This document shows positions 7,858 to 23,194 of a stretch of DNA of 64,000 nucleotides, one piece after another. The DNA comes from Ricordea florida. Its lineage: Eukaryota > Cnidaria > Anthozoa > Corallimorpharia > Ricordeidae. The notes below the pieces were generated by a model. The model was given only the letters and a program-made list of their open reading frames with translations, had not been told where the DNA came from and searched no databases. Made by a program: the position numbers and the translations under genes. Where the stretch lies: NCBI GenBank assembly GCA_949710005.1, contig OX453276.1, positions 22,127,849 to 22,191,848 of the forward strand, given 5' to 3'. Each line of letters opens with the position of its first letter. Within the stretch, counting starts at the first letter, position 1.

Positions 7858-7871
7858 AAAATTGATTTAAA
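7858..7871 (+). promoter_or_regulatory. Putative early promoter AAAATTGATTTAAA of PolB
   Basis: Exact 14-mer inside the left ITR. Its TTTAAA starts 30 nt before the ATG at 7,896. The same word precedes all three minus-strand genes at 17.2-22.8 kb. AAAATTGA is the known early promoter word of mimivirus-type giant viruses. Confidence 0.6.
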
Positions 7872-7895
7872 AGAATGGGTAAGCATAATAAGAAA

Positions 7896-10800
7896 ATGGA
7901 TCAATTAAAAGGCTATGTATTAAAAGAAATTGTGAGGGAATTACGTATACGGGGGAGAAGTCGTATGCGAAGAGAGGATAGAGTAGTGGCATTACGTGAA
8001 ATGGGAATAAACACACAAGAGGATTTGGAAAATTATAGGCGGAGACTTAATGAAGATCAGCAAATACCGAGAACACCACCAGGTTCTCCTCCGCCAAGAA
8101 CTCCACCTGTTACACCACCCGGATCACCTCCGCCAAGAACTCCACCTGTTACACCACCTGGTTCTCCTCCACCAAGAAAAAGGAAACTAGCACCAACTTT
8201 TATAAAACCACAAACACCAAGAACTCTACCCGGTTCTACTCCGTCAAGAAAAAGAAAATTAGCATCACAAGTACCAATTCTTGATGAGCCGGTACCTAAA
8301 ATTAATGTTCCAATTCTCAAACCAAAGAATATTTTTAAGGTGTTAGATAAAGATAAGTTTGCCAAAAAGCTTGAAGAATTAGCAAATGAAAATATCATAA
8401 AATTTACTAATAAGAAAACTAAACCAAAAAAGGGGGTAACTATATCTGATAGTGTGAGAGATGAATTGAAGGAAAAAACTAAAAAGAAAAGAACAACAAC
8501 CCTCAAAATATTTTCAATAAATCCGCATGAAGATGATCCCCCAATTCAAAATAATCGGGAAAATATTATTAGAATTAGGAGGGATCTAAATAATGATTTG
8601 ACAGAAACAATTTATAATGAGTTGGAACCCAAAATAGAAATGGGGGCAAGAATTGTTTTCAGTTTTACAGCTTTGATCCAAAGAGGAAATGGAGAAATAG
8701 CTTACCACGCGCACACATTTAGAAGCGGAGGAACTTTTACCTCCCTTCCAGAAATAAAAAATTATATAGAGCAGTGCGAGGGAGAAAGATTGAGTTTAGA
8801 GGGTATCGCTTGGATGAGAGCATATTTACCCCCAGAAAAGAAAATTAATAAACCAGGTGTTAATGAGGGCGGAGTTGAGTTTAGAGAAGTACAAATAAAA
8901 GTTATTAATACCAGACAACCTTTAGTTGGGTGCGGAAGATTACCCGATGAATTACGAAAGAAAAGATGTATTTATTCCGTAGATGATAAAGATGATAATC
9001 TCTGTGTATGGCGGTGCTTGGCTATTCTTATGAATATCAATTCTGGTAAACAAAACCCTGAAAAACGAATAGAGAAACAAGCCCTAAATTTAGCTAGAAC
9101 TTTTTATGGCAACAAAAAATTAAAAGGAGAAGAAGTTAGATCGACAAAATTGGTTGATTTTGAGAAAATTTCAAAGGTTTTCTCCATAAACATCCGGGTT
9201 TATGAGCAGAAAGATATATCAAATTTTAAAGTTTGGAAACTGGTGTTTGGGAAAAATAATTTCAAAGATAATTTACCAACTTTAAATTTAGGTCTTTATA
9301 ATAATCATGGTTTTTTCATTAAGAATCTAGACCTTCTTGCCCAAAACTGGGTATGCCAAGGATGTAATCAAAAATTTACCAGGCACGAAGATTTAAAAAG
9401 GCATTTTACCAACGAAACATGCACAGGAGGAAAAACAAAAATATTTTGCACAGGAGAAAAGATAAAACACATCATGAATGAATCTGAAAAAGTTTTTTAC
9501 GGGGGTAAAATCAATTTTAGTTATAAAGCGTGTCGGTGGATAGAAAACCAATCTAAAATTATGGGAAAACATATTCATCATGGGCTTTGTGGTCACGGGG
9601 GCGAAAGGTGTTATAGGGATGAAGAGGGGAATGAGATTTTATTTGATGGATACGAACCCGAGACAAATACCGTTTTTGAGTTTTATGGATGTAAATGGCA
9701 TGGGTGTCCGTGTTCATCAACCGACAAAATAAAATATAATGAAACTATTGAAAGAGAGAATATGATAAAAAGCTTGGGTTATAATGTAGTATCGGTTTGG
9801 GAGTGTGAAAATCCTGAATTACCCAATATCTGGTTCAAAAAGAAATTTAATCCATATCCTTATTTTATTGATTACGATTTTGAGGGATTATTACAAAAAG
9901 AAGATAAACAGATTACCGATGATTTAATTTTTACCCATACCCATATTCCAGTTAGTGTCGCAATAATCGATAATTTAACAAAAAAACCCGTTTTTCTTTG
10001 CAACCAAAATCCTGATGAGCTTATAAAAGAATTCGTTGAAAAATTGGAGGAAATAAGAAAAATTATAGTAGAAAAGGTTAGAGAAGAATACCCGCTACCT
10101 GATCAAGATTCCTTGCAAAAAAATGTCTTGCAAAAATATGAAGAATGGTGCAATCAAGTACCTGTTTTGGGGTTTAATAGTGGAAAATACGATATCAATT
10201 TGATTAAAAGACATTTTATAAAACACATGACCGATAAAACTAAGGATATTTTTATTGCAAAGAAACAGAATAGGTATATGTTTTTATCAACACCGCATTT
10301 CAAATTCTTGGATATAATGTCCTACCTTGCGCCTGGAGTTTCTTTTGATAAGTGGTGCAAAGCAAACAACTGTGAAGCCAAAAAACTTGTACTTCCTTAT
10401 GAAAAATTGGACGGTTATGATAAGCTTTCCTTAGTTGGACCTGTGAAACATGAAGATTTTTACTCTTCCTTGAAAAAGAAAAACATTTCCAAAGAAGAAT
10501 ATGAAGAATATTTACTCGAATTCGAAAAGAGGGGTTGCGTTACAATGCTGGACTGGTTGAAAGAGTATAATTTGAATGATGTTATTCCCTTTCTGGAAGC
10601 CCTTGAAAAAACAAGGCGATTATATTATCCGGATGAAATTGATATATTAAAAGATGCCGTTTCCATCCCAGGCGTATCAATGAGGGCTGTTCTAAATAAA
10701 TACCAAAAAATGAAGAAGAAAGGTGATCCTGAATTGTACGCTCCAGGACAATACTGTATTCATAGATGCAATAAAATTTGTAAAAACGAGTTTTGCAAAA

Positions 10801-12389
10801 AATGCTACAAAATAAGAAAAGATTGTAAAATATGCGATAAAAACAAGAGTTATAATCTATTGAAAACGGGTATGGTTGGAGGCCCTAGTATTTTATATAT
10901 GAGATATGCGGAGGCAGAAAAAACAATGATTCGCCTTCATAAATATAAAAACCCGAAAAAATGCGTGCGAATTGTTGGTAATGACGCAAATGGTTTATAT
11001 CTATACTGTTCTGGACAAGAAATGCCATGCGGAAAAGAAGAATGCATTGAGGTTGCAAAGCCATCGGATCCTAAATTTATTAAGAAGATTTGCGAAGATA
11101 TTCTTGACGGAAATCTTTTCGGGTTTTGTCAAGTTGATATCCATGTACCTGATCACCTAAAAGAAAAGTTTGAAGAGTTCTCCCCTTTATTTATTGTAGA
11201 CTCTGTTCCTGAATATTTAGTACCAGAGCATATGAAAGAATATCAAAGAGCGACAGGTAGAAAACATTTAAAAGACAATAAAAAATTGCTTGGTGTTACC
11301 AAGGCAAAAAAGATATTGTTATATACTCCTATGATAAAATGGTATCTTAATCATGGTTTGGAGATTACCGCCATCCATAATATTTTAAAGTATGAATCGG
11401 GAAGGCCCTTTGGATTTTTTGTAAAAGAGGTGGCAGACGCAAGAAGAGATGGAGATATTGAGGTTTTGTTGGAAAAACTAAGTAAAGCCTTTGATGAAAA
11501 CAAGATTGACGATGTAGTAAAAATTACCAATGAATTAAACCAATTTCCTGATATATTTAAAGCTATTGAAGAAAATAAAGATATCAAAGTGCTGATTGAA
11601 AAATTAAAACCAAAGTACAAAGGGTGTAAAGAATTAGCCGACACGAATAAACTTAGGGGAAATTCTTTCTACGGGAAAATGATAGAAGATAAAGAAAAAC
11701 ATAATATCACAAGGTATACTCAGGATGAGGAAGAGGTTGAAAAAGCCCTAAGATCTGCTTTCTTTGAGGATCTTAATGAAATAAATGACACATATGAAAT
11801 AATAAAACGAAAAAGATTAATAAAAATAGACAGGCCCTATCAATGCGGCATCGCGGTGTATCAGCTAGCAAAATTAAGAATGCTGGAATTCTATTACGAT
11901 TTTCTAGATAAATTTGTAGATAGAAAGGATTTTGAGCTGATACAAATGGATACAGATTCAATGTACATGGCAATTTCAGCCGAAAATTTGGATGATATTA
12001 TAAAACCCGAAATGAGAGAAGAATACTTTAGTGGCGGAAAAGAAAAATTCCTATCGACTTCTAAATATCATGATAAGACTCCGGCTTTGTTCAAAAAAGA
12101 GTTTGACGGTATTAGAATGATCGCTCTTTCATCAAAATGTTATTACGCGGAGGATGAGAAAGGAAAGGCAAAGTATAGTTGCAAAGGTACAATTCATAGA
12201 CAAAACGAAATGAACTGGGATAGATACATGTCAGCTTTGAAAGGGTCAATTGATATGTCACAAAATACAGGATTTAGAATCAATGATAACCAAATTGTGA
12301 CATATACACAAATTAAAAAGGGATTGAACGCATATTACGATAAAAGATGGGTTTATGAGGATGGAATTCACACAAAACCATTATTTTAA
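7896..12389 (+). CDS. polB: Protein-primed family B DNA polymerase with N-terminal accessory domains
   Basis: Replicates the element's linear genome (1,497 residues). In order: a Rho_N/SAP-like domain (1-45, starting MDQLKG); a Pro-rich repeat (about 60-115, PGSPPPRTPPVT units) with two basic RKRKLA nuclear-signal-like runs; an OTU-like Cys/His region (DDNLCVWRC near 370, NNHGFF near 470); a C2H2-like finger (486-511); and a VSR-like endonuclease segment (EFYGCKWHGC near 600, VWECE near 636). The 3'-5' exonuclease follows (YDFEG about 660, FNSGKYD about 759, YNLNDV about 892), then polymerase motifs A (NDANGLYLY, about 1028), B (KLRGNSFYG, about 1252) and C (DTDS, about 1352). All catalytic motifs are present. 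I chose ATG 7,896 over 7,875 because it sits 30 nt after the promoter box and matches the MDQL start of the right-end gene. The 3' end overlaps the integrase gene by 9 bp. Confidence 0.93.
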   Translation: MDQLKGYVLKEIVRELRIRGRSRMRREDRVVALREMGINTQEDLENYRRRLNEDQQIPRTPPGSPPPRTPPVTPPGSPPPRTPPVTPPGSPPPRKRKLAPTFIKPQTPRTLPGSTPSRKRKLASQVPILDEPVPKINVPILKPKNIFKVLDKDKFAKKLEELANENIIKFTNKKTKPKKGVTISDSVRDELKEKTKKKRTTTLKIFSINPHEDDPPIQNNRENIIRIRRDLNNDLTETIYNELEPKIEMGARIVFSFTALIQRGNGEIAYHAHTFRSGGTFTSLPEIKNYIEQCEGERLSLEGIAWMRAYLPPEKKINKPGVNEGGVEFREVQIKVINTRQPLVGCGRLPDELRKKRCIYSVDDKDDNLCVWRCLAILMNINSGKQNPEKRIEKQALNLARTFYGNKKLKGEEVRSTKLVDFEKISKVFSINIRVYEQKDISNFKVWKLVFGKNNFKDNLPTLNLGLYNNHGFFIKNLDLLAQNWVCQGCNQKFTRHEDLKRHFTNETCTGGKTKIFCTGEKIKHIMNESEKVFYGGKINFSYKACRWIENQSKIMGKHIHHGLCGHGGERCYRDEEGNEILFDGYEPETNTVFEFYGCKWHGCPCSSTDKIKYNETIERENMIKSLGYNVVSVWECENPELPNIWFKKKFNPYPYFIDYDFEGLLQKEDKQITDDLIFTHTHIPVSVAIIDNLTKKPVFLCNQNPDELIKEFVEKLEEIRKIIVEKVREEYPLPDQDSLQKNVLQKYEEWCNQVPVLGFNSGKYDINLIKRHFIKHMTDKTKDIFIAKKQNRYMFLSTPHFKFLDIMSYLAPGVSFDKWCKANNCEAKKLVLPYEKLDGYDKLSLVGPVKHEDFYSSLKKKNISKEEYEEYLLEFEKRGCVTMLDWLKEYNLNDVIPFLEALEKTRRLYYPDEIDILKDAVSIPGVSMRAVLNKYQKMKKKGDPELYAPGQYCIHRCNKICKNEFCKKCYKIRKDCKICDKNKSYNLLKTGMVGGPSILYMRYAEAEKTMIRLHKYKNPKKCVRIVGNDANGLYLYCSGQEMPCGKEECIEVAKPSDPKFIKKICEDILDGNLFGFCQVDIHVPDHLKEKFEEFSPLFIVDSVPEYLVPEHMKEYQRATGRKHLKDNKKLLGVTKAKKILLYTPMIKWYLNHGLEITAIHNILKYESGRPFGFFVKEVADARRDGDIEVLLEKLSKAFDENKIDDVVKITNELNQFPDIFKAIEENKDIKVLIEKLKPKYKGCKELADTNKLRGNSFYGKMIEDKEKHNITRYTQDEEEVEKALRSAFFEDLNEINDTYEIIKRKRLIKIDRPYQCGIAVYQLAKLRMLEFYYDFLDKFVDRKDFELIQMDTDSMYMAISAENLDDIIKPEMREEYFSGGKEKFLSTSKYHDKTPALFKKEFDGIRMIALSSKCYYAEDEKGKAKYSCKGTIHRQNEMNWDRYMSALKGSIDMSQNTGFRINDNQIVTYTQIKKGLNAYYDKRWVYEDGIHTKPLF
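8075..8260 (+). repeat. Proline-rich tandem repeat within polB
   Basis: Repeats of about 42 bp encode PPGSPPPRTPPVT-type units, followed by two degenerate copies ending in RKRKLA. The antisense frame is open for 149 codons only because of this repeat. Confidence 0.8.
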
Positions 12390-13355
12390 AACAGAATTAG
12401 GGGGTAACTCTGTATCATCCGGAATAACCTGTAATTCTTCACGCACAAAACCCCGTCTTGGGCCATCCTCTAAAAAGTATAAAACAGGCTGATTAGGAGA
12501 AATTCTACTTCCAGAAATATAATAAATTTTAATACTCCAAATGGGATCTGTGGCTCTTCTTCTTTCCCCACCCTCAAGTTCACCCGGAGATAATAAATAT
12601 CTAACCCTAACTTCAGTTGGTAGTCTAACCTCATCAAGACCCACCACACGTTTGTAATTTTTAGTTTCAATATTCACCTCTTTCATTTTTATAGCCTCAT
12701 CGGGCTCTTTACCGGTTATTCTCTTTTTCGTATTATTCAAAGTTTTTAGAATAGCCGGTAATCTTTTCACCCATACTCTTGATCGATCATCACTGATCAT
12801 TTCCTGCGCATATTGATGGCTAAATAATTTTTCTCCTAATATTTTATTTGCGTTTTCCACAAATGCTTGTGCTCTATGATTACCAGCCTCACTTCTTTGT
12901 ATCCTCACATTATGGTAATTCATGAGTTTACTAACTTCACCCATAAATTCTTTCCCAGGATCAACCATTAAAGTTTTTGGATATTTTAATCTTCTAGAAT
13001 ATATTTTCTTAAAAGCTTCTGATATCTCTCGACTTTCTTTTGAGGTTAATGGCTCAGCATCTTTATATCTCGAGGCGATATCAACCACAACTAACGCGTA
13101 TTTATATGTTTTTCTTCCAACTCTATCGTGCGGTAAAAATAATAAATCCGCTTGGTGAATCTGATTGGGTTTATCCACAGTCCAGTGCGGCCTAGGTATA
13201 TATTTAGGCGGGGGTAGATAGATTTGCCATATTGCCTGTTTCTGTAACCATTGTTTTGCCACATTTTCACTTACTTTAGCCTTCTCAGCCAATTTAGGAA
13301 TCGCGGCATATCCTTTCCAATACCCTTCGACCGAATAATATATTTTTGACATCAT
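12381..13355 (-). CDS. int: Retroviral-type DDE integrase (rve)
   Basis: 324 residues; inserts the element's linear DNA into host chromosomes. A helix-turn-helix-like N-terminus (about 16-40, IPKLAEKAKVSENVAKQWL) precedes the RNase-H-fold core. Catalytic residues are visible: D70 (QADLLF), D132 (VDPGKEF) and E167 (AQAFVENANK), the last two with 34 residues between them. The C-terminal part (about 225-315) is a basic, beta-rich tail of the SH3/chromo type seen in Polinton integrases. The gene converges on polB with a 9-bp overlap and diverges from the 58-codon gene across a 31-bp gap. The start is MM at 13,355; 13,352 is an alternative. No box of the TTTAAA type sits at the usual distance, so its control may differ. 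Confidence 0.93.
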   Translation of the reverse strand: MMSKIYYSVEGYWKGYAAIPKLAEKAKVSENVAKQWLQKQAIWQIYLPPPKYIPRPHWTVDKPNQIHQADLLFLPHDRVGRKTYKYALVVVDIASRYKDAEPLTSKESREISEAFKKIYSRRLKYPKTLMVDPGKEFMGEVSKLMNYHNVRIQRSEAGNHRAQAFVENANKILGEKLFSHQYAQEMISDDRSRVWVKRLPAILKTLNNTKKRITGKEPDEAIKMKEVNIETKNYKRVVGLDEVRLPTEVRVRYLLSPGELEGGERRRATDPIWSIKIYYISGSRISPNQPVLYFLEDGPRRGFVREELQVIPDDTELPPNSVLK

Positions 13356-13360
13356 TTAAA
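13355..13360 (+). promoter_or_regulatory. Late-type box TTTAAA for the 58-codon gene
   Basis: Starts 32 nt before ATG 13,387. It overlaps the integrase start on the other strand. Confidence 0.5.
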
Positions 13361-13369
13361 AATAAGCAA

Positions 13370-13383
13370 TTATCTTATAAATT
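13370..13383 (+). promoter_or_regulatory. TATCTTATAAATTA motif, copy 1
   Basis: An exact 14-mer ending 3 nt before ATG 13,387. It recurs at 13,577-13,590, again 2-3 nt before an ATG (the capsid gene). Possibly the initiator/leader part of a strong late promoter, or a duplicated leader. Confidence 0.5.
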
Positions 13384-13386
13384 AAA

Positions 13387-13563
13387 ATGCCGGAGGAAGA
13401 AAAAACAAAATTTAGCGAAAACCAAATTAATCTCATGAAAAAAATTATTAGGGAAAAAATTCTATATATGGAAGATGGCGATAAAATTTTTAATATTATG
13501 ATTTTAATTCCCGAGGCGAGAGAGGGTTTATTAAAACATATTGGTGAGTTAGAAAAGGTTTAA
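13387..13563 (+). CDS. Small conserved-position protein, 58 aa
   Basis: A short ORF starting MPEEEKTKFSENQINLMKK and ending in ...LLKHIGELEKV. It is acidic at the start, then amphipathic helix, with no membrane segment. I do not recognise it. It is real by context: it fills the gap between integrase and capsid genes, has a TTTAAA box 32 nt upstream, and shares its last 14-nt leader (TATCTTATAAATTA) exactly with the capsid gene. A structural or capsid-assembly role is possible from its position only. Confidence 0.7.
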   Translation: MPEEEKTKFSENQINLMKKIIREKILYMEDGDKIFNIMILIPEAREGLLKHIGELEKV

Positions 13564-13564
13564 A
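13559..13564 (+). promoter_or_regulatory. Late-type box TTTAAA for the capsid gene
   Basis: Starts 34 nt before ATG 13,593 and overlaps the stop codon of the preceding small gene. Confidence 0.55.
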
Positions 13565-13576
13565 GGTTAACCAAAG

Positions 13577-13590
13577 TATCTTATAAATTA
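13577..13590 (+). promoter_or_regulatory. TATCTTATAAATTA motif, copy 2
   Basis: Exact repeat of 13,370-13,383, ending 2 nt before the capsid ATG. Confidence 0.5.
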
Positions 13591-13592
13591 CA

Positions 13593-14828
13593 ATGACGTC
13601 TGAAAAAATTAATCCAAACAGAATTCCAAAAGAACCCTTTGGTTTGAAAGCAGAATCAACCCTGAATAGAATTACTCTAAATCCATCCACGGCCAGTCCA
13701 GGAGAAACATTATATATAAATATTCCAAAACTCGCCGAGAATTTGGTGATTGTTCCTGGAAGTGTATCTCTTCTATTTGATTTAGATGTTGAGGGTCATG
13801 CGAATAATACACTTGTGAATAATGTGGGTCGTAATCTTGTAACCAGACTAAAAGTTCTTTTTGGGGGAGAAACACTTCAGGATACTCAAAGATATGATCT
13901 GTTTAAAACATATCATGATTTATTCCTAACTGAAGAAGAGCGTGAAGATAGATTAAAACAAGGTATTTCTTCTGAAAATATGAGAAAACTTAGAACAAAT
14001 GCCGGTGATAAGGATGATTCAGATTCAAAAGAATTAGCTCTTGCGGCAATTCATAATACTAAGTATAGAATACCAATAGATCACCCAGTTTTAAAAGATC
14101 ATGGAGTTTTTTATCCAAAAGCATTAGAAAATCATTTAATATTTGAGATTACACTAGCCCCATTTTATGATATTATTAAATATTCAGATGTAACAAAAGC
14201 ACCATCATATTCAATCAAAAACCTTGAGTTAGAATATTCTTCAATTTCAAGCGAATACTTAGCGCGCGAAGCACAAGCCGCCTATCAAGTTGGTAAAGGA
14301 TTCTTTTATGAAAATGTTACTTTACACAAAACTTTTACATTTAAAGTAGTCGCTGATGGTGTTATTAATCAACATATTAATTTACCGAGAAGATCAATGA
14401 CTGGAATATTATTTTTGTTTACTCTACCACATGCCGGGGGGTTAAGAGATTCTGAAAAATTTTATAATCCAAATATAACTTCTGTTAATATTGATGTTGA
14501 TGGCGTTCCAAATCGAATATACTCTAGGGGTATGATTCCATCTGATCTTTGGGAATCCGTGAAAAAACGCTTTCATAGGGAACAAATTTCATTAAAAGAA
14601 GAAGATTTTTACGCGGATAAGTTTGCTCTTTGGGTTGATACTAGAACTCATCCAGATAATGGTATTCATGGAGGAGGACTGGCTCTAAATAATACGCATG
14701 ATGGCGTAAAAATAGAAATTAAAAGGAATGTAAAAAGTACCTCAGAAACAGTAACTTGTTATATGTTTGTCGTAGCAGATGCAATGCTGGAGATTATGAA
14801 TTCAGGTTTGAGATCAATTAAGTACTGA
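13593..14828 (+). CDS. Major capsid protein candidate (double jelly-roll type)
   Basis: 411 residues, beta-rich. The N-terminal third has the pattern expected of Polinton-type double jelly-roll capsid proteins: GETLYINIPKL, then PGSVSLLFDLDV, then TLVNNVGRNLVTRLKVLFGG and a DTQRYDLFKTYHDLFL segment, where an NN-x-x-R-x-L stretch sits in a conserved strand-turn. The middle has IDHPVLKDHGVF and a PRRSM segment. It lies directly upstream of the packaging ATPase, the usual capsid-ATPase neighbourhood. It is shorter than many Maverick capsid proteins. I recall close relatives as uncharacterised proteins in cnidarian genomes. Assignment is by pattern and context; structure prediction would settle it. 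Transcription is probably late (TTTAAA box at -34). Confidence 0.72.
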   Translation: MTSEKINPNRIPKEPFGLKAESTLNRITLNPSTASPGETLYINIPKLAENLVIVPGSVSLLFDLDVEGHANNTLVNNVGRNLVTRLKVLFGGETLQDTQRYDLFKTYHDLFLTEEEREDRLKQGISSENMRKLRTNAGDKDDSDSKELALAAIHNTKYRIPIDHPVLKDHGVFYPKALENHLIFEITLAPFYDIIKYSDVTKAPSYSIKNLELEYSSISSEYLAREAQAAYQVGKGFFYENVTLHKTFTFKVVADGVINQHINLPRRSMTGILFLFTLPHAGGLRDSEKFYNPNITSVNIDVDGVPNRIYSRGMIPSDLWESVKKRFHREQISLKEEDFYADKFALWVDTRTHPDNGIHGGGLALNNTHDGVKIEIKRNVKSTSETVTCYMFVVADAMLEIMNSGLRSIKY

Positions 14829-14835
14829 CCAAGAA

Positions 14836-14841
14836 TCTAAA
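14836..14841 (+). promoter_or_regulatory. Late-type box TCTAAA for the ATPase
   Basis: Starts 31 nt before ATG 14,867. Confidence 0.5.
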
Positions 14842-14866
14842 AACATAATGTTATGATACAAAAATC

Positions 14867-16064: not shown

Positions 16065-16070
16065 TCTAAA
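16065..16070 (+). promoter_or_regulatory. Late-type box TCTAAA for the 140-codon gene
   Basis: Starts 32 nt before ATG 16,097. Confidence 0.5.
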
Positions 16071-16096
16071 AACTTATCTTCAGCATCTAAATAACA

Positions 16097-16519
16097 ATGT
16101 CCGAACAAAATGAACAAGTTGAGCAAATTACGGCGGATCCTGCACCCGAAAATAAAGATACTAAAAAGAAAGAGAAAGATCCTAAAAAGGTTGCGGCTGG
16201 AAAGAAATTAGCCGAATATAATAAAAAAGCAAAAGATGCATTAGCCAGGGAGATGAAACGAAACGAAAATACAGAAATAGAGTATAGTCAAGAAAAGTCA
16301 AACAATGAAGCTAAATCATGGCTACCTGAGTTATCTTTTACTACTGTTTTATCCGTTATTGGATTAGGGTTTACAGCATTTGATCTTTTTATGAGATATA
16401 AGGAAAAAGCTAGGGTTGAATATTCTAATAGGATACCTGATTTATCACAAGTTCCGCAATTACCACAACCAAAAAAGATACCATTTTCTGTAGCCCCAAA
16501 ATCTTTAGGAATGGAATAA
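16097..16519 (+). CDS. Lys-rich single-pass membrane protein, 140 aa
   Basis: The N-terminal half is charged (DTKKKEKDPKKVAAGKKLAE), then one hydrophobic segment near residues 76-97 (LPELSFTTVLSVIGLGFTAF), then a Pro-rich tail (VPQLPQPKKIPFSVAP). The basic part could bind DNA and the hydrophobic part a membrane or capsid interior, much as small core proteins of adenovirus-like particles do. This is inference from composition. Function not recognised. Confidence 0.78.
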   Translation: MSEQNEQVEQITADPAPENKDTKKKEKDPKKVAAGKKLAEYNKKAKDALAREMKRNENTEIEYSQEKSNNEAKSWLPELSFTTVLSVIGLGFTAFDLFMRYKEKARVEYSNRIPDLSQVPQLPQPKKIPFSVAPKSLGME

Positions 16520-16524
16520 AGTCA

Positions 16525-16530
16525 TTTAAA
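16525..16530 (+). promoter_or_regulatory. Late-type box TTTAAA for the 72-codon gene
   Basis: Starts 33 nt before ATG 16,558, followed by GATACAGTAAAAAATC just before the ATG, a leader similar to those at 14,867 and 17,822. Confidence 0.5.
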
Positions 16531-16557
16531 AGTTTCCCAATGATACAGTAAAAAATC

Positions 16558-16776
16558 ATGTCAACTGAAAACAGACTTGTGAAAACTGTAACTGATTCTG
16601 CGGTGCTTATTGGATTGGGGGCTGGGGTTGGATATGTAGCTAAAAAGATGATGAAAGAATCATTTTTGAGCGACCCATCTTCAAGTATTACAAATTATGC
16701 AAAGTGGGTAGCTGTATTATCCGGAAGCATGTATCTTAAAACATATTTAGAGGATCAAAAGATTTTACCAAAATAA
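16558..16776 (+). CDS. Small two-segment membrane protein, 72 aa
   Basis: MSTENRLVKTVTDS, then a Gly-rich hydrophobic stretch (AVLIGLGAGVGYVAKKM), a polar linker and a second hydrophobic stretch (YAKWVAVLSGSMYL). One nucleotide separates its stop from the next ATG. Probably a minor virion membrane or penetration protein; function not known to me. Confidence 0.75.
   Translation: MSTENRLVKTVTDSAVLIGLGAGVGYVAKKMMKESFLSDPSSSITNYAKWVAVLSGSMYLKTYLEDQKILPK
16746..16751 (+). promoter_or_regulatory. Late-type box TTTAGA for the 130-codon gene
   Basis: Inside the end of the 72-codon gene, 32 nt before ATG 16,778. Confidence 0.45.
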
Positions 16777-16777
16777 A

Positions 16778-17170
16778 ATGGCAGCAATAGCGATGATGAT
16801 TGGTGGGGCTATATTGAATGCAACGGCATTTACTGGTGGAAATTATCTTGCAAAATATTTATCTGGGCGCAATGAGGATACAGAAAAAATACGACACGAC
16901 AAAGCAATGGAAAAATATCAAAGAGATTACGCAGCATATCAGGAAAAAAGACAAAAAATGCTTGATTGGAAAATGAAAAGAAAAGATGAAAAATATCAAG
17001 CATCAAAAAATATTTCGGCAACAAATCAGGCTTTTGAATTGTACGCTCAAATGAATGAACCAAAATTCTCTGATTATTACAAACCAAGCGATGATCAAAA
17101 AACAGGAGAAATGGCATATGTCGGGGCAGGAATGTTAGGTTTAGGTTACGCGGTCAGTAAATTATTGTAA
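16778..17170 (+). CDS. Coiled-coil protein with hydrophobic ends, 130 aa
   Basis: An N-terminal Gly/Ala-rich hydrophobic segment (about 1-25, MIGGAILNATAFTGGNYLA) is followed by a long charged helix (about 35-80: MEKYQRDYAAYQEKRQKML) and a C-terminal hydrophobic end (about 112-130, AYVGAGMLGLGYAVSKLL). I recall near relatives in other cnidarian Maverick copies, which supports it as a real conserved gene. It converges on the minus-strand gene at 17,209, with a hairpin between the stops. Confidence 0.78.
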   Translation: MAAIAMMIGGAILNATAFTGGNYLAKYLSGRNEDTEKIRHDKAMEKYQRDYAAYQEKRQKMLDWKMKRKDEKYQASKNISATNQAFELYAQMNEPKFSDYYKPSDDQKTGEMAYVGAGMLGLGYAVSKLL

Positions 17171-17174
17171 TGTT

Positions 17175-17204
17175 GTTATGTAACCAGTAATTGGGTTATA
17201 TAAC
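17175..17204. terminator. Bidirectional 3'-end hairpin, copy 1
   Basis: GTTATGTAACC, an 8-nt loop, then GGTTATATAAC: an 11-bp stem with one G-T wobble, placed between two convergent stop codons. The 37 bp from 17,175 to 17,211, including the minus-strand stop, recur exactly at 21,841-21,877, also between convergent genes. Hairpin-defined transcript ends are known in mimivirus and its relatives. Confidence 0.7.
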
Positions 17205-17208
17205 ATAA

Positions 17209-17724
17209 TTATGACCATCTTTCTTCCAAATCTCTCAATTCTTGAAAATCTAAATATCTGCTTGGCTGCCAGACTGCAGCAACTATTTCATCATGCAGAC
17301 TTTTGTAGAATTTGTTTTTACGTAATACTTTATATGGATTTGTATATACACTTACCCAAAATGTATCAATGAGAACTTTTTTATTAATCAATGCATTTCT
17401 AAATTTTGTTGCCTCTGGACGATCATTTAAAAAATCATTAGAATTTTCATCAGACGGAAATATTCCAGACATATCGCATTTTGGAGTAAAAGAAAAACCA
17501 TAATAATGCTTATGGCCATTATCTTGTGTATAATTAATTTGAAAATCAACCAATTCGTTTTTTCCAATATCTTCATATTTAATAGAAAGGGCTTTTGATA
17601 AATTATATAAACAATCTTCTTTTATTAATCTCAAAAAATCCATATTTGGTATTTTTTTATCATTAAAATATTCTAAGGTAAAACCTATATTATATTTACG
17701 TATTTTTTTTACTATTCTTGCCAT
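17209..17724 (-). CDS. Unknown protein, 171 aa, paralogue of the gene at 21,875-22,399
   Basis: Starts MARIVKKIRKYNIG. There is no membrane segment. The C-terminal 40 residues (KFYKSLHDEIVAAVWQPSRY, then LDFQELRDLEE) match those of the other minus-strand paralogue (KFYKDLRDELMVVTWHPSRY). That tail resembles a W-H-P-x-R motif I remember at the ends of many proteins of large nucleocytoplasmic DNA viruses; this is from memory and unverified. It is preceded by the exact AAAATTGATTTAAA word and ends at the duplicated hairpin. It is probably an early, non-structural or host-interaction gene. Confidence 0.78.
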   Translation of the reverse strand: MARIVKKIRKYNIGFTLEYFNDKKIPNMDFLRLIKEDCLYNLSKALSIKYEDIGKNELVDFQINYTQDNGHKHYYGFSFTPKCDMSGIFPSDENSNDFLNDRPEATKFRNALINKKVLIDTFWVSVYTNPYKVLRKNKFYKSLHDEIVAAVWQPSRYLDFQELRDLEERWS

Positions 17725-17749
17725 TTTTTTCTTTTATATTTTTTTTTCT

Positions 17750-17763
17750 TTTAAATCAATTTT
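17750..17763 (-). promoter_or_regulatory. Putative early promoter AAAATTGATTTAAA
   Basis: Exact 14-mer on the minus strand; its TTTAAA starts 31 nt before ATG 17,724. Confidence 0.6.
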
Positions 17764-17788
17764 ACTCTTATTTTCAAAATCTAGGTAA

Positions 17789-17794
17789 TCTAAA
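17789..17794 (+). promoter_or_regulatory. Late-type box TCTAAA; decides the start of the 326-codon gene
   Basis: 33 nt before ATG 17,822 but only 18 nt before the upstream in-frame ATG 17,807. The GTAAAAAAATC leader before 17,822 matches other late leaders, so 17,822 is chosen. Confidence 0.5.
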
Positions 17795-17821
17795 GATTTC
17801 ATACTGATGAGTAAAAAAATC

Positions 17822-18802
17822 ATGGCAGAAGGAGGAGATTTAGACCCAACTGAACTAAATGAAACAAAAGATGATGCAGATAATAAAGATAATGATGATA
17901 CATTTTATATGACGCCTATAAATACATCCACAAGTTACCCAAATCCTGATTATGGTGGTGGGGAGGAGGAGGAAACCTCATTTGACGGCGCTAATGAAAA
18001 AACTCGCTTAATAGAAAAAAAATTAGAAGGAGCAGAATATGAAATAAAAAAAGTAAGACCAGAATCAAAATTAAAACAATTTCTTTCATTTTTTATGCGT
18101 ACTAGTACTGGTATAGAATTGCCGGCAGTTGAAGGACCATCGGGAGGAACATATGTTTATACGGCTAATGATGATGAGTTTAGAAGATATGATAAAAAAA
18201 CGGGAAAAATAATGGAAAAACTTAAACCTGGGAAATTAAAAGATGCTTTAGGTCCAAGTAGATCAGAAAAAGTTGAACAACTCGATTCAGAAATTGCGAA
18301 TAAAAAAGAAAAACAAAATGAGAGGCTTGAAAGAAAAAAAGCGCTTGATAATAAACCCGATAAAACCACAGAAGAAACCGCAGAACTTGAAAATTTAAAT
18401 GCAGAAGTTATAGAAAACGATGAAGATATAGCAAACGATGTTGCCGAAAGAGAAAGAATTCAAGAAACAATGTCTTTGAGAGAGCGAATAAAGTATATCT
18501 TCAAAAAGTATGGATTTACAGCATTTGCGATTTTAAGCGCAGCTGGTTTAGTAATTGGGGTTATAATTTCTAATCTTTCTAAAGGTCTAACAACATTAGG
18601 CAAAGGTTTAGGAAATGGATTAAAAACTATTGGTAAAAAACTAGGCGAAATATTGCCAGGAATGGTTGGTGCTATTGTTAGCTTTTTATTCAAAACAGCT
18701 GGTGAAGTTATTGGGTTTTTAGGAAAGAATGCTTGGCTTTTGATAATGGCTGTGGTTCTATATTTTGTGGAACAAATTAAAGGCGGGAAGAAGAGAAAGT
18801 AA
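17822..18802 (+). CDS. Acidic/coiled-coil protein with C-terminal membrane-active region, 326 aa
   Basis: The first 60 residues are acidic and Asn/Gly-rich. A middle region (about 140-215) is a charged coiled coil (NKKEKQNERLERKKALDNK). The C-terminus has a hydrophobic segment (about 232-250), a Gly/Lys amphipathic repeat (LTTLGKGLGNGLKTIGKKLG) and further hydrophobic segments (about 270-295 and 304-318), ending GGKKRK. I remember very similar C-termini in many cnidarian predicted proteins. By analogy with adenovirus-type internal proteins it could disrupt membranes on entry; that is inference. It has a late-type promoter. Confidence 0.78.
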   Translation: MAEGGDLDPTELNETKDDADNKDNDDTFYMTPINTSTSYPNPDYGGGEEEETSFDGANEKTRLIEKKLEGAEYEIKKVRPESKLKQFLSFFMRTSTGIELPAVEGPSGGTYVYTANDDEFRRYDKKTGKIMEKLKPGKLKDALGPSRSEKVEQLDSEIANKKEKQNERLERKKALDNKPDKTTEETAELENLNAEVIENDEDIANDVAERERIQETMSLRERIKYIFKKYGFTAFAILSAAGLVIGVIISNLSKGLTTLGKGLGNGLKTIGKKLGEILPGMVGAIVSFLFKTAGEVIGFLGKNAWLLIMAVVLYFVEQIKGGKKRK

Positions 18803-18806
18803 CAAA

Positions 18807-18812
18807 TTTAAA
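18807..18812 (+). promoter_or_regulatory. Late-type box TTTAAA for the 203-codon gene
   Basis: Starts 29 nt before ATG 18,836. Confidence 0.5.
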
Positions 18813-18835
18813 GATATCACGGCGATCAGTAAAAT

Positions 18836-19447
18836 ATGGATGACTACAATAAAATTTATCCTCAATTACCCAATAATACAGATCCTAGTTCCTCCCTTCA
18901 GTCAGTTAATTTCAGACTGCAAAAATCAAGCGAGGTATTACAAAATCTAGAGAAAGAAATTAAACATTACGAAGAAGTAAGGAAAAAATATAATAGGGCT
19001 AGAGGAATATGTACAAAAATTAGTATTTCTGGTGGTTTGATTTCAGTTATTCTATCAGCAAGCGGTCTCGGAACTTCTCTCACCGGTTTTGGAGCTATTG
19101 TCGGTGTGCCTTTGGGTGTTGTCGGCGGGGTTTTTGGCGGATTATCGATTGGATTCGGTTATGCATCAAAAAGGCTTTCTGGTAAAGTTAGTAAACACGA
19201 ACAAACCGCCGCAATTGCAAAATCAAAATTAAACACCATTAACGATTTGGTTTCAAAAGCTCTGAAAGATAATGTTATATCCGACCAAGAATTTTCCATA
19301 ATTTTGGCGGAGTTGGAAAAGTTTCAAAAACTAAAACTAGAAGTTCGGCAAAAATTTCGGAGAGATACAGAAAAAAACTTGGACATAGGTGTGATAAGGA
19401 AGGAAGTCCGCGAAAAACTATTAAAAGAACTTACCGGAGGTCATTAA
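18836..19447 (+). CDS. Coiled-coil/glycine-rich membrane protein, 203 aa
   Basis: An N-terminal coiled coil (about 22-55, LQKSSEVLQNLEKEIKHYEE) is followed by a Gly-rich hydrophobic hairpin (about 62-105, with GFGAIVGVPLGVVGGVFGG) and a second helical region rich in Lys/Glu. The architecture resembles pore-forming or membrane-remodelling proteins, but no family is recognised. It lies in the late block between the 326-codon and 529-codon genes. A frame starting at 18,765 in another register is a shadow. Confidence 0.78.
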   Translation: MDDYNKIYPQLPNNTDPSSSLQSVNFRLQKSSEVLQNLEKEIKHYEEVRKKYNRARGICTKISISGGLISVILSASGLGTSLTGFGAIVGVPLGVVGGVFGGLSIGFGYASKRLSGKVSKHEQTAAIAKSKLNTINDLVSKALKDNVISDQEFSIILAELEKFQKLKLEVRQKFRRDTEKNLDIGVIRKEVREKLLKELTGGH

Positions 19448-19562
19448 AACTGGTATATGAGAGAACAGAAGTTGGTTGTAATTGTTTTGCAGGTATTAAT
19501 TGATTTTACATCTTATTCTTAAAAGATCTAAAGATCACATTATTTGTAACACAAAGAATAAG
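19448..19562 (+). other. 115-bp leader region before the 529-codon gene
   Basis: The largest gap in the structural block, AT-rich and without an ORF. The open frame runs back to a TTG at 19,500 but lacks an ATG there. Confidence 0.5.
19527..19532 (+). promoter_or_regulatory. Late-type box TCTAAA for the 529-codon gene
   Basis: Starts 36 nt before ATG 19,563, the widest spacing of the series. It supports 19,563 as the start. Confidence 0.45.
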
Positions 19563-21152
19563 ATGTTATTGGATGATTTCACAAACCGTTACCCAAACGC
19601 GAACCTAAATAAATTTACTTTTGTGAATGACTCATTTGGTGGGTATATTGAATGGAAAGTTAATGGGACAACAATTATGTCTGATGATGATCCTTCTGGA
19701 GAAACTTGGACTGCAAATCTTTCTAATAATTTGAAAACATTATTATGGGAAGATTTGGGGTTAGAAATTAAAGTTAAGGCAAGTTCATTTCCAAAAAGTT
19801 TAACATTTACAAAACAAACATATCCAATACCTGGAGTTAAATTTGATGAATTTGCTACTGATGTAACAAAAATGTTAACTAATTTAGATATATATGTTTC
19901 AGAAAAAGATCATTTCACTGCGGCGATGACAAATGTATTTAAAAATCAAACAGTAGAACTTACTAGTGGAAAAGAAGCTAGAGCTTGGTTGAGTAAACCA
20001 AATATTAATCACTGGCCTCAGCAATTAAACATGGCGGTTTGGTGCTCAACATCTGGTTGCGGTGTTAGTTTAATTGAAATTTTAAATTACCCGAGAGTTA
20101 TTAGAAGTTTTTTTGTATTTCACGTTTATTTTACAATAAGAAGAATATTACAGGAATTAAATGTACCATTACCCGGCGAACAAACTTTTTCTTCAAAAAA
20201 TAATCCGTACGACAAAAATGTTTATAATAGATTGTGCGCAGAATTTGGGTTAAGCAATAATCAAGATTTTAAAGGATGGAAAAAACCTTTAGCTGATTTT
20301 AGATTTAAGGGTGGTGCAAACCATGGGGTTGGAGATGTATTCATTGATTATGGAAAAGGATACATCCCTCCTGGAGGTGGTAGTTCACAAGCAGTAGGAG
20401 GAGGAAATCAAAACGTAAGAATTATACATCCTAATGATCCTGATGTAAATATTTGGCCCAGTGAAATAAATAAATTTGCCGATTATGGCGGTAAAAAATT
20501 TGGTGGGACTTTAATATCTATGCTTCGAAATGATCATTTTGTAGATTTTCAATATGCGTGGTTTATACCAGAATCTGGATATGGATTAACAAAAGCCGGA
20601 TTGGGAAGAATAAATAGATCAGTTGAGGCTTTTGTTTATTGCATATTGGGTGCTCAAGTTAATACCAGAAATTCTATTATTGGTACCGGCGGTGGAGCAA
20701 TAGAAACACAAAATGAATTCAAAGACTTATTTGAAAGTTCTGTTAGAGTAAATGATATTTCTAAATCCGTTCAAAATTACCAACAATCTGTACAGGAAAC
20801 TAAATTACGGCTTGATTTGGCTGTTGCTCCTGGAGTTTGGTTGATGCCAAGTAATTTAATTATAAATACAGAAAGTGCGGTTGGGTACAATAATAATCTG
20901 AAAATAGCAACAGAAGATATGAAATTTGGGGTAAATAATTCAATAAATGTCGAAACAAAAAATGTCGGAATACCTAATAGTTTAGGAACATCAAAGGTTT
21001 TATTAAATACCAATCCTCAACCAAAGAAACCTAAATTAAGCAATGACGATAAATCAGACAAAACAGATGATATAGAAAAATCTTCTCATCAAAATAATCT
21101 TATTGTTTTAATGTTTGCCGGGGGATTATTATCTTGGTTTTTATTTCGTTAA
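19563..21152 (+). CDS. Large tail-anchored virion-type protein, 529 aa
   Basis: Starts MLLDDFTNRYPNANLNKF. Recognisable landmarks are MAVWCSTSGCGVSLIEIL, a FHVYFTIRRIL stretch, NNPYDKNVYNRLC, a Gly-rich loop (GKGYIPPGGGSSQAVGGG), YGLTKAGLGRINRSVEAFVY and VGYNNNLKIATEDMKFGVN. A polar Lys/Ser/Asp linker leads to a C-terminal membrane anchor (about 510-528, LIVLMFAGGLLSWFLF). I remember homologues in cnidarian and mollusc genomes without assigned function. It may be a second large capsid or virion surface protein, or an entry factor; undecided. The upstream TTG-started extension is rejected. Confidence 0.8.
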   Translation: MLLDDFTNRYPNANLNKFTFVNDSFGGYIEWKVNGTTIMSDDDPSGETWTANLSNNLKTLLWEDLGLEIKVKASSFPKSLTFTKQTYPIPGVKFDEFATDVTKMLTNLDIYVSEKDHFTAAMTNVFKNQTVELTSGKEARAWLSKPNINHWPQQLNMAVWCSTSGCGVSLIEILNYPRVIRSFFVFHVYFTIRRILQELNVPLPGEQTFSSKNNPYDKNVYNRLCAEFGLSNNQDFKGWKKPLADFRFKGGANHGVGDVFIDYGKGYIPPGGGSSQAVGGGNQNVRIIHPNDPDVNIWPSEINKFADYGGKKFGGTLISMLRNDHFVDFQYAWFIPESGYGLTKAGLGRINRSVEAFVYCILGAQVNTRNSIIGTGGGAIETQNEFKDLFESSVRVNDISKSVQNYQQSVQETKLRLDLAVAPGVWLMPSNLIINTESAVGYNNNLKIATEDMKFGVNNSINVETKNVGIPNSLGTSKVLLNTNPQPKKPKLSNDDKSDKTDDIEKSSHQNNLIVLMFAGGLLSWFLFR

Positions 21153-21170
21153 TGTTTTGATTATGATCAA

Positions 21171-21176
21171 TTTAAA
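21171..21176 (+). promoter_or_regulatory. Late-type box TTTAAA for the penton-like gene
   Basis: Starts 33 nt before ATG 21,204. Confidence 0.5.
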
Positions 21177-21203
21177 GATGAGTTTAATGTAATCAAAACA
21201 AAA

Positions 21204-21833
21204 ATGTTCAGCATTACAATGTACGATTCAGAAACTAGAATTTATTTAGATCCGCCGCTGAAAAATCTTCGGGAGATACAGCTCCTGGATTGTGATATAC
21301 AAACCAAAAGACTAATAACTTTAAGGAACCAAGAAAAAATAACTGATGAAAAAGGCGGGCCTTTAGTAATATTTAATCCAGGAATATATTCCATAAATGA
21401 TATAAAAATATTAATTGAGCTCGGCGAAAAGACTAAAGATATAACAATTATTATCGGAGATAATTTTGCTTACATAATCAACAATAAATCAATTAACATT
21501 AAATTTACTCGGGGTTTGCAAAATTCTTTAGGTGTGCCCGAGGTTTTATTTAAAATAAGTCAAATAGATATAACTATAAAAGAACCTTTGAGACTTTTAT
21601 GCAGTATAGTTGATAATAGAATGTCATACGCGAATAAAGGTAAAAATGGAGATCTTACAAAAATACAACCATCCCAATTGTTAGCAAACATTCCTTCACA
21701 AGATTACCCCACAATTCCTGTTAGAAAATATGATAACTTGATTAACCATTTTGATTTAACTATCTTAGACTCAGAATGGAAAAAATTTGATCTAAAGAGT
21801 TCTCCCATAACTTTTAGTTTAAGATTCAGATAA
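21204..21833 (+). CDS. Minor capsid (penton-like, single jelly-roll) candidate, 209 aa
   Basis: A beta-rich protein with the layout I know from Polinton/adintovirus penton-type proteins. Near the N-terminus a strand reads IYLDPPLKNLREIQLLDCDI. In the middle is a PGIYSINDIKILIE segment followed by a short beta stretch and SLGVPEVLFK. At the C-terminus is the pattern (N)HFDLTILDSEWKKFDLKSS ending in a final strand, like the N-F-D-x-x-L-x-D ... L signature of pentons. It is the last plus-strand gene and converges on the 174-codon gene, separated by the duplicated hairpin. Assignment is by pattern; a structure prediction should show one jelly roll. Confidence 0.65.
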   Translation: MFSITMYDSETRIYLDPPLKNLREIQLLDCDIQTKRLITLRNQEKITDEKGGPLVIFNPGIYSINDIKILIELGEKTKDITIIIGDNFAYIINNKSINIKFTRGLQNSLGVPEVLFKISQIDITIKEPLRLLCSIVDNRMSYANKGKNGDLTKIQPSQLLANIPSQDYPTIPVRKYDNLINHFDLTILDSEWKKFDLKSSPITFSLRFR

Positions 21834-21840
21834 ATTTTTT

Positions 21841-21870
21841 GTTATGTAACCAGTAATTGGGTTATATAAC
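21841..21870. terminator. Bidirectional 3'-end hairpin, copy 2
   Basis: Identical to 17,175-17,204 (37 bp identical through 21,877) and again between convergent stops (21,833 plus strand, 21,875 minus strand). Confidence 0.7.
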
Positions 21871-21874
21871 ATAA

Positions 21875-22399
21875 TTAATCTTCTTCACCAAATACCTCTT
21901 CTTCCAAAAACCTTAACTCTTCAAAATCAAGACACCAATCAAAATATCTAGATGGATGCCATGTTACAACCATTAATTCATCACGCAAGTCTTTGTAGAA
22001 TTTCTTTTTATGATTTAATTTATTATAATCATAATCCCTTTGAAAATAAATATCACTAATTATATATTTATTATCAAAATCATTAATACTAACTTCTTTT
22101 TTATCTTCTCTTAAAAATTTTTTCATAAGATCATTAGCATTTATACCATTAACACCAAAATTTAAATTTTTCAAAAATATTGGTGTTTGATTTCCAAAAA
22201 AACTATTCATTTTATCATTCCTCCCCAAAAAATGAAAACATAAATTTATTTTTCCTATTAAACATTCTCTATCCTTTGCTAGTCTTTTTATTATATCATC
22301 TTTAATTGAATTAATAAAAGCACAAGAATCCAATTTATTAGTATTAAAATAAGTAAAATTTCTTAATTCGATTTCATTCACATCAAAAATATTTTCCAT
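21875..22399 (-). CDS. Unknown protein, 174 aa, paralogue of the gene at 17,209-17,724
   Basis: Starts MENIFDVNEIELRNF; Asn/Lys/Asp-rich, with no membrane segment. The tail has KFYKDLRDELMVVTWHPSRY followed by FDWCLDFEELRFLEEE, aligning with the paralogue's tail. The N-terminal parts have drifted apart, so the duplication is old or the domain is shared by recombination. Gene, promoter word and hairpin recur together, so the whole module was duplicated. W-H-P-S-R and D-W-C-L recall the tail motif of giant-virus proteins (memory, unverified). Function not known. Confidence 0.78.
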   Translation of the reverse strand: MENIFDVNEIELRNFTYFNTNKLDSCAFINSIKDDIIKRLAKDRECLIGKINLCFHFLGRNDKMNSFFGNQTPIFLKNLNFGVNGINANDLMKKFLREDKKEVSINDFDNKYIISDIYFQRDYDYNKLNHKKKFYKDLRDELMVVTWHPSRYFDWCLDFEELRFLEEEVFGEED

Positions 22400-22414
22400 T
22401 TTTTTTATATTAAT

Positions 22415-22825
22415 TCAATCACAATTCTTTAAATCAATTTTTTTGCTTATACGACAATCCTTACAATAAGTTTTTTGTTTATTATGTTCACATATTTGTG
22501 ATCCTCCGCATTCTTTACATTGTTGTTTTTGATTATTATGTTCACATATTTGTGATCCCCCACATTCCTTACATCGATATTTATATTTATTATGCATACA
22601 ATTATGCCCATTACATTCACTACAAATTTTTTTTATTTTCCCATGATCACAAATAATTCTGCTAATGGGGATAACTTTTTTAATTAAATCAGTAATTTCC
22701 TCATCTTTAAATTTTTTAATCTCACTAATTATTTTTTTTTTACTCATTTTTGATCTTCCCTTAATTTCTAGATCTTTCGCTATTATTTTTAGTTCATAAG
22801 TATATAAATCTCTCAATTGATCCAT
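22415..22825 (-). CDS. Rho_N/SAP-like protein with C-x-H-x6-C-x2-C repeats, 136 aa
   Basis: The N-terminus (MDQLRDLYTYELKIIAKDL, then EIKGRSKMSKKKIISEIK) is homologous by eye to residues 1-36 of PolB and resembles a Rho_N or SAP nucleic-acid-binding domain. Residues 60-130 contain four metal-binding units such as CEHNNQKQQCKEC and CEHNKQKTYCKDC, separated by GGSQI. Repeats of the GGSQICEH type are ones I recall from Mimiviridae-like genomes and some algae. The promoter lies in the right ITR, so it and polB share one duplicated control region. Likely an early DNA- or RNA-binding regulator. Confidence 0.82.
   Translation of the reverse strand: MDQLRDLYTYELKIIAKDLEIKGRSKMSKKKIISEIKKFKDEEITDLIKKVIPISRIICDHGKIKKICSECNGHNCMHNKYKYRCKECGGSQICEHNNQKQQCKECGGSQICEHNKQKTYCKDCRISKKIDLKNCD
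22428..22441 (-). promoter_or_regulatory. Putative early promoter AAAATTGATTTAAA
   Basis: Exact 14-mer on the minus strand; its TTTAAA starts 34 nt before ATG 22,399. It overlaps the 3' end of the upstream gene's coding region. Confidence 0.6.
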
Positions 22826-22852
22826 AACTAATCTTTATGAAAATTATCTATC

Positions 22853-23194
22853 CTTTTAAATCAATTTTTTCACATAAGCTTAGTATCAGTTTTTTTTCCC
22901 CCTTCACCTAAAACGTAATTATATATCTCACAAATGATTGATCAAAACTTACTCTTAGGAAGATATTTTTCAGTCAAATTTGAAAACGTGCTTATGAACC
23001 TTAACCTAAAAATGTCAGAGATTTTTCAGTCAAATTTGAAAACGTGCTTATGAACCTTAACCTAAAAATGTCAGAGATTTTTCAGTCAAATTTGAAAACG
23101 TACTTATGAACCTTAACCTAAAAATGTCAGAGATTTTTCAGTCAAATTTGAAAATAACCTAAAAACGTACTTATAAACACGCTTATATAGTAGT
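22853..23194 (-). repeat. Right ITR of the Maverick (342 bp)
   Basis: Reverse complement of 7,533-7,873 apart from one substitution and a homopolymer length change. It ends CACGCTTATATAGTAGT and contains the mirrored 56-bp subrepeat array (about 22,958-23,178). Confidence 0.95.
22855..22868 (-). promoter_or_regulatory. Putative early promoter AAAATTGATTTAAA in right ITR
   Basis: Mirror copy of 7,858-7,871; its TTTAAA starts 35 nt before ATG 22,825. Confidence 0.6.

What the first reader, a model, noticed from the sequence alone, without database searches (positions are those of the whole stretch)
7858..22868. Two-class promoter code in a Maverick: AAAATTGATTTAAA versus T[TC]TA[AG]A
Seen directly: PolB and the three minus-strand genes (17,724; 22,399; 22,825) each have the exact 14-mer AAAATTGATTTAAA, with TTTAAA 30-35 nt before the ATG. 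Two of the four copies are the duplicated ITR, so there are three independent instances. Eleven plus-strand genes, mostly virion-type, have TTTAAA, TCTAAA or TTTAGA 29-36 nt before the ATG, sometimes inside the preceding coding region. Known: AAAATTGA is the early promoter word of mimivirus-type viruses, and TCTA-centred late boxes are shared by CroV and its virophage mavirus. Inference: the element has early and late gene classes readable by a giant-virus-like or a self-like transcription system rather than only by the host.
Basis: partly seen in the sequence, partly recalled or inferred. Interest (0 to 1): 0.87.

Follow-up and report, generated by a model that had tools for sequence, protein, structure and literature searches.

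The report
Giant-virus-style gene switches in a Maverick
A virus-like mobile element present in many copies in an apparently animal genome marks its early and late genes with two different start signals, and ends some of them with hairpins, in the style of giant viruses and their virophages, which suggests it may be read by a giant virus rather than by its host.

Summary
All four exact copies of AAAATTGATTTAAA in the 64 kb stand before PolB and the three minus-strand genes. T[TC]TA[AG]A lies 29-36 nt before the ATG of 15 of 16 genes; the integrase is the exception. Shuffles average 0.69 of 14 genes and never exceed 5 in 5,000. In the same genome the box is kept in 176 of 186 distinct upstreams; the early word is absent from 177 of 177 late-gene upstreams and stands before an early-type gene at 18 of 20 nearly unselected genome-wide places, in several unrelated families, one of them DUF2738. 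Early word, TCTA-like late box and hairpin ends are the Mimivirus/CroV/virophage set. Host histone genes use TATAAA at -54 to -75 instead. That a giant virus reads the signals is the likeliest reading, not shown: no transcripts, no relatives outside this genome, and no giant virus identified in it (VLTF3-like fragments unresolved).

The parts
7532..23195 (.). Maverick/Polinton element, terminal inverted repeats 7532-7836 and 22891-23195, about 6-bp target-site duplication (TCTTGG/CTTGGA, ends ambiguous by 1-2 bases), inserted in a non-LTR retrotransposon
   Evidence: (repeats 303 of 305 identical)
7858..7871 (+). early promoter of PolB, AAAATTGATTTAAA
   Evidence: relatives
7896..12389 (+). 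PolB gene from its likely start (ORF opens at 7875)
   Evidence: identified by motifs by eye, no Pfam hit
12381..13355 (-). integrase gene; the only gene without the box
13355..13360 (+). late box TTTAAA of small gene 13387-13563 (58 aa)
   Evidence: 14 of 14 distinct copies
13559..13564 (+). late box TTTAAA of capsid-type gene CP411 (13593-14828)
   Evidence: 21 of 21 distinct copies
14836..14841 (+). late box TCTAAA of the A32-type ATPase (14867-15493)
   Evidence: 18 of 23 distinct copies
15469..15474 (+). late box TTTAGA of g186 (15499-16059), inside the ATPase coding region
   Evidence: 28 of 28
16065..16070 (+). late box TCTAAA of g140 (16097-16519)
   Evidence: 24 of 25, also in copies with unrelated flanks
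16525..16530 (+). late box TTTAAA of small gene 16558-16776 (72 aa)
   Evidence: 24 of 24
16746..16751 (+). late box TTTAGA of g130 (16778-17170), inside the 72-aa gene
   Evidence: 16 of 17
17174..17205 (.). hairpin between converging g130 and m171
17750..17763 (-). early promoter of m171 (17209-17724)
17789..17794 (+). late box TCTAAA of g331 (start 17822)
18807..18812 (+). late box TTTAAA of g203 (18836-19447)
   Evidence: 7 of 7
19527..19532 (+). late box TCTAAA of v529 (19563-21152)
   Evidence: 8 of 8
21153..21200 (+). stem TGTTTTGATTA/TAATCAAAACA starting right after the v529 stop; the g209 box lies in its loop
   Evidence: inner 10-nt arms identical in 9 of 9
21171..21176 (+). late box TTTAAA of g209 (21204-21833)
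   Evidence: 7 of 7
21840..21871 (.). hairpin between converging g209 and m174, same 32 nt as at 17174
22428..22441 (-). early promoter of m174 (21875-22399)
22855..22868 (-). early promoter of m136 (22415-22825)

Best explanation
The element carries a selected set of transcription signals of the giant-virus kind. A core box (T, T/C, T, A, A/G, A) sits about 32 nt before nearly every ATG. In genes for replication and accessory functions it is fused to AAAATTG(A), making an early promoter; without that word it is a late promoter for virion-type genes. Transcripts of some genes end at a hairpin just after the stop codon. Shown: the words, their spacing, their division by gene class, their persistence while flanks and even whole genes are exchanged, and the hairpins as DNA sequences.
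For:: words and spacing; late box over 184 distinct upstreams of 11 genes, position 2 is T 0.63 and C 0.36 gene-weighted, no A; early word before PolB, m136-like, m171/m174-like, DUF2738 and an 88-90 aa gene. DUF2738, E 4.9e-49; hairpins after stops; of 12 distinct hairpins pair 12 is C-G in 8 and T-A in 4 (after removing two listed twice from opposite strands); 13 of 14 host histone genes have TATAAA at -54 to -75, 0 of 14 have the box. Literature passages: AAAATTGA early and hairpin polyadenylation in Mimivirus (PMC4402537); TCTA late and the same early motif in CroV (PMC5294985; PMC13196603); [quoted passage not shown]
Against: No RNA data. The NCLDV capsid family PF04451 was not found in the own genome (but its controls rang nowhere). 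Pox_VLTF3 matched at 4 places over the cut-off; the two best have stops and I saw no giant-virus neighbours by eye, so this neither shows nor excludes a giant virus. Only 5 of 16 window genes have an identified 3' hairpin, and the hairpin arms are largely conserved in sequence, unlike Mimivirus. The total number of hairpins in the element is not above shuffles. In m174-like relatives strict TTTAAA is kept in 1 of 5; exact AAAATTGA is kept in 2 of 7 m136 relatives, with AATTTGATT in 2 and only TATTGATTTA in 3. The integrase lacks the signal.
Confidence: 0.55

Rival explanations
1. Host RNA polymerase II reads the element; T[TC]TA[AG]A is a TATA-box variant and the AAAATTGA word an upstream activator or germline factor site.
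For: The box is TATA-like and stands near -30; TTTAAA can resemble a weak TATA box (recalled). TATAAA or TATATA occurs at -40 to -28 in 5 of 184 late upstreams. The element amplified to 150 scored ATPase matches of 96-100% identity, so something in this host lineage has read it.
Against: A TATA box 32 nt before the ATG would give nearly leaderless mRNAs. Host histone TATAAA is at -54 to -75 in 13 of 14 genes and the box in none. Position 2 of the box shows no A. AWTAAA is near the stop in only 5 of 14 genes: 3 overlap the stop codon itself, 2 lie inside the next gene.
Confidence: 0.22
2. The code is inherited from an ancestor shared with giant viruses and is read by a factor of the element itself together with the host polymerase, without any giant virus.
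For: A common ancestral early promoter of giant-virus families has been proposed (PMC5294985 and PMC11788076, passages). Several element proteins are unassigned.
Against: No RNA polymerase or convincing transcription-factor family among the proteins scanned. A lone inherited code without its polymerase should decay, but it is kept.
Confidence: 0.18
3. The hairpins are recombination or protein-binding sites that mark exchangeable gene cassettes, not 3'-end signals.
For: They flank the variable accessory genes; TGTTATATAACA is itself a palindrome; arms are largely conserved in sequence.
Against: They sit 6-20 nt after both stop codons at the g209 junction in 8 of 8 relatives, other hairpins have unrelated sequences (after v529, before g140), and pair 12 varies in a compensating way.
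Confidence: 0.2
4. Chance in AT-rich DNA, or conservation of neighbouring coding sequence only.
For: AT content 68%; AAAATTGA alone is not enriched in the window; two late boxes lie in coding sequence.
Against: 0 of 5,000 shuffles; unrelated flanks with the box kept at g140; 18 of 20 genome-wide words before early-type genes.
Confidence: 0.01

Closest known systems
Mavirus and endogenous mavirus-like elements (EMALEs) of Cafeteria
   Same: Maverick-like integrating element with PolB and integrase; TCTA-type late word shared with its giant virus CroV (PMC8547959, PMC10945749, PMC6723459, passages).
   Different: Apparently animal host, early plus late classes, YTARA core instead of strict TCTA, no known giant virus.
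Mimivirus transcription signals
   Same: AAAATTGA early word, separate late class, hairpin at transcript ends (PMC4402537, passages).
   Different: Late word differs; hairpin arms largely conserved in sequence here; no polymerase detected in the element.
CroV and ChlorV
   Same: AAAAATTGA early and TCTA late (PMC5294985, PMC13196603, passages).
   Different: 4 of 11 late genes in the window have TCTA, 7 have TTTA.
Sputnik virophage
   Same: Helper-type promoters and hairpin signals at the end of 16 genes (PMC6723459; PMC11998528, passages).
   Different: Sputnik is an exogenous amoebal virophage; here the classes are cleaner: 0 of 177 late upstreams have the early word.
Vertebrate Mavericks (proteoviruses)
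   Same: Same kind of element; a virophage-like role against giant viruses was proposed as a possibility (PMC8097293, passages).
   Different: The passages I saw give no promoter evidence; cnidarian capsid genes fall outside the main metazoan Maverick group (PMC10120064, passages).

Membership tests
Maverick/Polinton | retroviral-type integrase | tested here: met
   PF00665 rve, 2.3e-09, over cut-off
Maverick/Polinton | A32-like packaging ATPase | tested here: met
   PF04665 Pox_A32, 5.8e-12, over cut-off
Maverick/Polinton | protein-primed DNA polymerase B | tested here: inconclusive
   1,497-aa protein with PolB motifs by eye; no Pfam or PDB match
Maverick/Polinton | double jelly-roll capsid | tested here: inconclusive
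   CP411: PF16903 at E 0.0072, under cut-off; structure model unusable, pLDDT 34
Maverick/Polinton | long inverted repeats, 15-20 kb, about 6-bp target duplication | tested here: met
Mimivirus-type early promoter | AAAATTGA upstream of replication/early genes only | tested here: met
   some m136 and m174 relatives carry variants; expression timing not tested
CroV-type late promoter | TCTA in AT-rich surroundings before late genes | tested here: inconclusive
   4 of 11 late genes TCTA, 7 TTTA; T and C interchange in orthologues
Mimivirus hairpin rule | transcripts end at hairpin palindromes, not AATAAA | tested here: inconclusive
   hairpins about 90 times denser after stops than in coding DNA, but at 5 of 16 window gene ends; no transcript ends known
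Virophage | needs a co-infecting giant virus | not testable with these tools
   no helper known; capsid search inconclusive, VLTF3-like fragments unresolved
Virophage | virophage-clade capsid/ATPase/protease genes | not tested

The most novel reading that the evidence does not exclude
Mavericks of this apparently animal genome are virophages of a still unknown mimivirus-like giant virus of animals: integrated copies stay silent until that virus supplies polymerase, early and late factors and hairpin-dependent 3'-end formation. The integrase, alone without the signal, would be left to the host.
Probability: 0.33. Interest if true: 0.93.

Novelty: new variant of a known kind. Interest (0 to 1): 0.77.

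Why it matters
Whether animal Mavericks are independent viruses, transposons or virophage-like has been open; a virophage role in vertebrates has been proposed as a possibility (PMC8097293, passages). A readable early/late/hairpin code gives a direct test: map transcript ends of expressed copies, and look for a giant virus with the same words in the same host. If a giant virus is found, animals would have the virophage-type relation so far known to me only from protists (recalled).

Tried and rejected
Relatives outside this genome: eight viral-contig scans and tblastn of PolB in phage records gave none. One search (early word plus spacing) found 28 contigs, several of them the same few sequences repeated; I judged them by eye to be mostly chance and did not pursue them. 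The protein-homologue database was switched off. Structure of CP411 folded alone: useless.

Giant virus remains in the genome: capsid family none (control silent); VLTF3-like matches at 4 places, all over the cut-off, set aside because the two best are broken and I saw no giant-virus neighbours by eye.

Trans-splice acceptor reading of the box: rejected because the ATPase and g140 boxes lack AG (sequence). Box as initiator at the start site: less likely because upstream ATGs would fall in the leaders, not excluded.

DUF1759 (BEL/Pao type, metazoan as recalled) in the window supports an animal; marker searches (PF01353, PF00110) did not complete. The genome-wide count of the hairpin and of DUF2738, and the search with the v529 protein, did not complete either.

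Full report
What it is. A 15.7 kb Maverick/Polinton lies at 7532-23195 with 305-nt end repeats that match at 303 positions and about a 6-bp target duplication, inside a non-LTR retrotransposon. It has an integrase (PF00665), an A32-like ATPase, a PolB recognised by motifs only, and 13 further genes by my count. In the genome (538 Mb, 48 contigs) 150 ATPase matches were scored, all with open frames and 96-100% identity, the window's own included; only the best 150 of 5,040 candidates were scored. It is therefore a recent, large family.

Early word. AAAATTGATTTAAA is exact at four places in 64 kb. In the own genome it occurs 840 times against 70 for the reversed control. I fetched 20 of 23 consecutive places on contig C1, leaving out three of one element already fetched in part. 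At 18 of 20 an ATG-started ORF of an early-type gene begins 29-39 nt after TTTAAA: 9 DUF2738-type, 3 m171/m174-like, 2 m136-like, 1 PolB, and 3 of an 88-90 aa family without match in my set. In one of the m136-like cases (L118) the match is in another frame than that ATG, so this copy is probably decayed. Of the other two, L116 has an unmatched 64-aa ORF and L115 none. None of the 18 matches a late gene. In three copies the m171 place holds a gene of 264-294 aa that gave no match to m171; two of the three were scanned and are DUF2738, PF10927, E 4.9e-49 and 8.1e-51. That DUF2738 is a giant-virus family is recalled, not tested.

Late box. Eleven plus-strand genes have T[TC]TA[AG]A at -29 to -36. 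In 186 distinct 60-nt upstreams of 14 genes from the own genome (PolB could not be scored in that script) 176 have the box at -29 to -39; of all ATGs in loci L009-L046, real starts included, 344 of 5,441 do. Misses: ATPase 5 of 23 (four keep CTAAA, one has lost the site), g140 1 of 25, g130 1 of 17, m174 1 of 1, m136 2 of 7. g140 occurs with unrelated DNA around the box, and CP411 with different DNA just upstream of it, the box kept. Letters at the box are 0.94-1.00 identical to the window copy, against 0.47-0.84 in the 20 nt upstream; the leader at +14 to +23 is also well kept (0.75-0.96), and the anchoring favours the first 14 positions. T and C interchange at position 2 between orthologues; no A was seen there. 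A looser AATTGATT stands further upstream, near -65, before v529, outside the stretch counted.

Right-end relatives. In eight copies (v529, g203 and g209 57-93% identical) the early genes change order and number, but keep the signal in varying strength: m171-like genes 4 of 4 with the full 14-mer; m136 5 of 7 with strict TTTAAA, but exact AAAATTGA in 2 of 7, AATTTGATT in 2 and only TATTGATTTA in 3; m174-like genes AATTGATT in 5 of 5 and strict TTTAAA in 1 of 5.

Hairpins. The same 32-nt hairpin stands at both converging junctions (17174-17205, 21840-21871). At the g209 junction all 8 relatives have one, 6-20 nt after both stops. One search listed 14 hairpins of this type; two are the same sites read on the other strand (L006 and L041), leaving 12 distinct, with loops of 2-15 nt. 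Pair 12 is C-G in 8 and T-A in 4; pairs 1-4 were fixed by the search itself. v529 has another stem with inner arms identical in 9 of 9 and loops of 25-35 nt. A third kind stands before g140 in 6 of 30 ATPase loci. Over the window element and the eight relatives, hairpins of 11 bp or more: 12 in 2,346 bases after stops, 2 in 5,648 bases of other gaps, 3 in 53,645 coding bases; the relatives are not independent of each other. Against this: the total in the element is not above shuffles, and A+T content of gaps was not matched.

Host comparison. Of 14 histone genes in 8 fetched loci (of 150 matches), 13 have TATAAA at -54 to -75 and none has the box within 140 nt. Histones are one gene class only.

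Interpretation. The three signals together are those published for Mimivirus, CroV and their virophages (passages only). The likeliest reader is a giant-virus-type transcription system; I put this at about 0.55, since no helper and no transcripts are known. Literature searches listed no paper that I recognised, from title and abstract start, as being on promoter motifs of animal Mavericks; I read listings and passages, not whole papers. On rechecking I corrected the hairpin count (12, not 14) and the L118 case; neither changes the odds.

Noticed in passing
7573-7766 and 22961-23154: Each terminal repeat holds about three tandem copies of a 56-nt unit.
   Followed up: no
7896 and 22825: PolB and m136 look alike at their N-termini by eye (m136: Rho_N-like, E 0.00065, under cut-off), apparently because the inverted repeat runs into both genes.
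   Followed up: partly
12381-13355: The integrase is the only gene without the box; the box of the divergent 58-aa gene overlaps the integrase start codon.
   Followed up: partly
13371-13389 and 13577-13595: The 58-aa gene and CP411 share TATCTTATAAATTA(A/C)A directly before the ATG.
   Followed up: no
L002, L004, L007 (m171 slot); L039-L046 (right end): Accessory genes seem to be exchanged as cassettes between an early promoter and a 3' hairpin.
   Followed up: partly
L121, L122, L123, L124: Pox_VLTF3-like matches in the host genome (4 places, over cut-off), the two best with stops, among transposon-like or unknown ORFs; origin unclear.
   Followed up: partly
L088: A 102 kb viral contig whose held 8 kb has AAAATTGA five times and the control word none; possibly giant-virus-like.
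   Followed up: no
53848-54432: DUF1759 protein of a BEL/Pao-type retrotransposon in the host flank.
   Followed up: no
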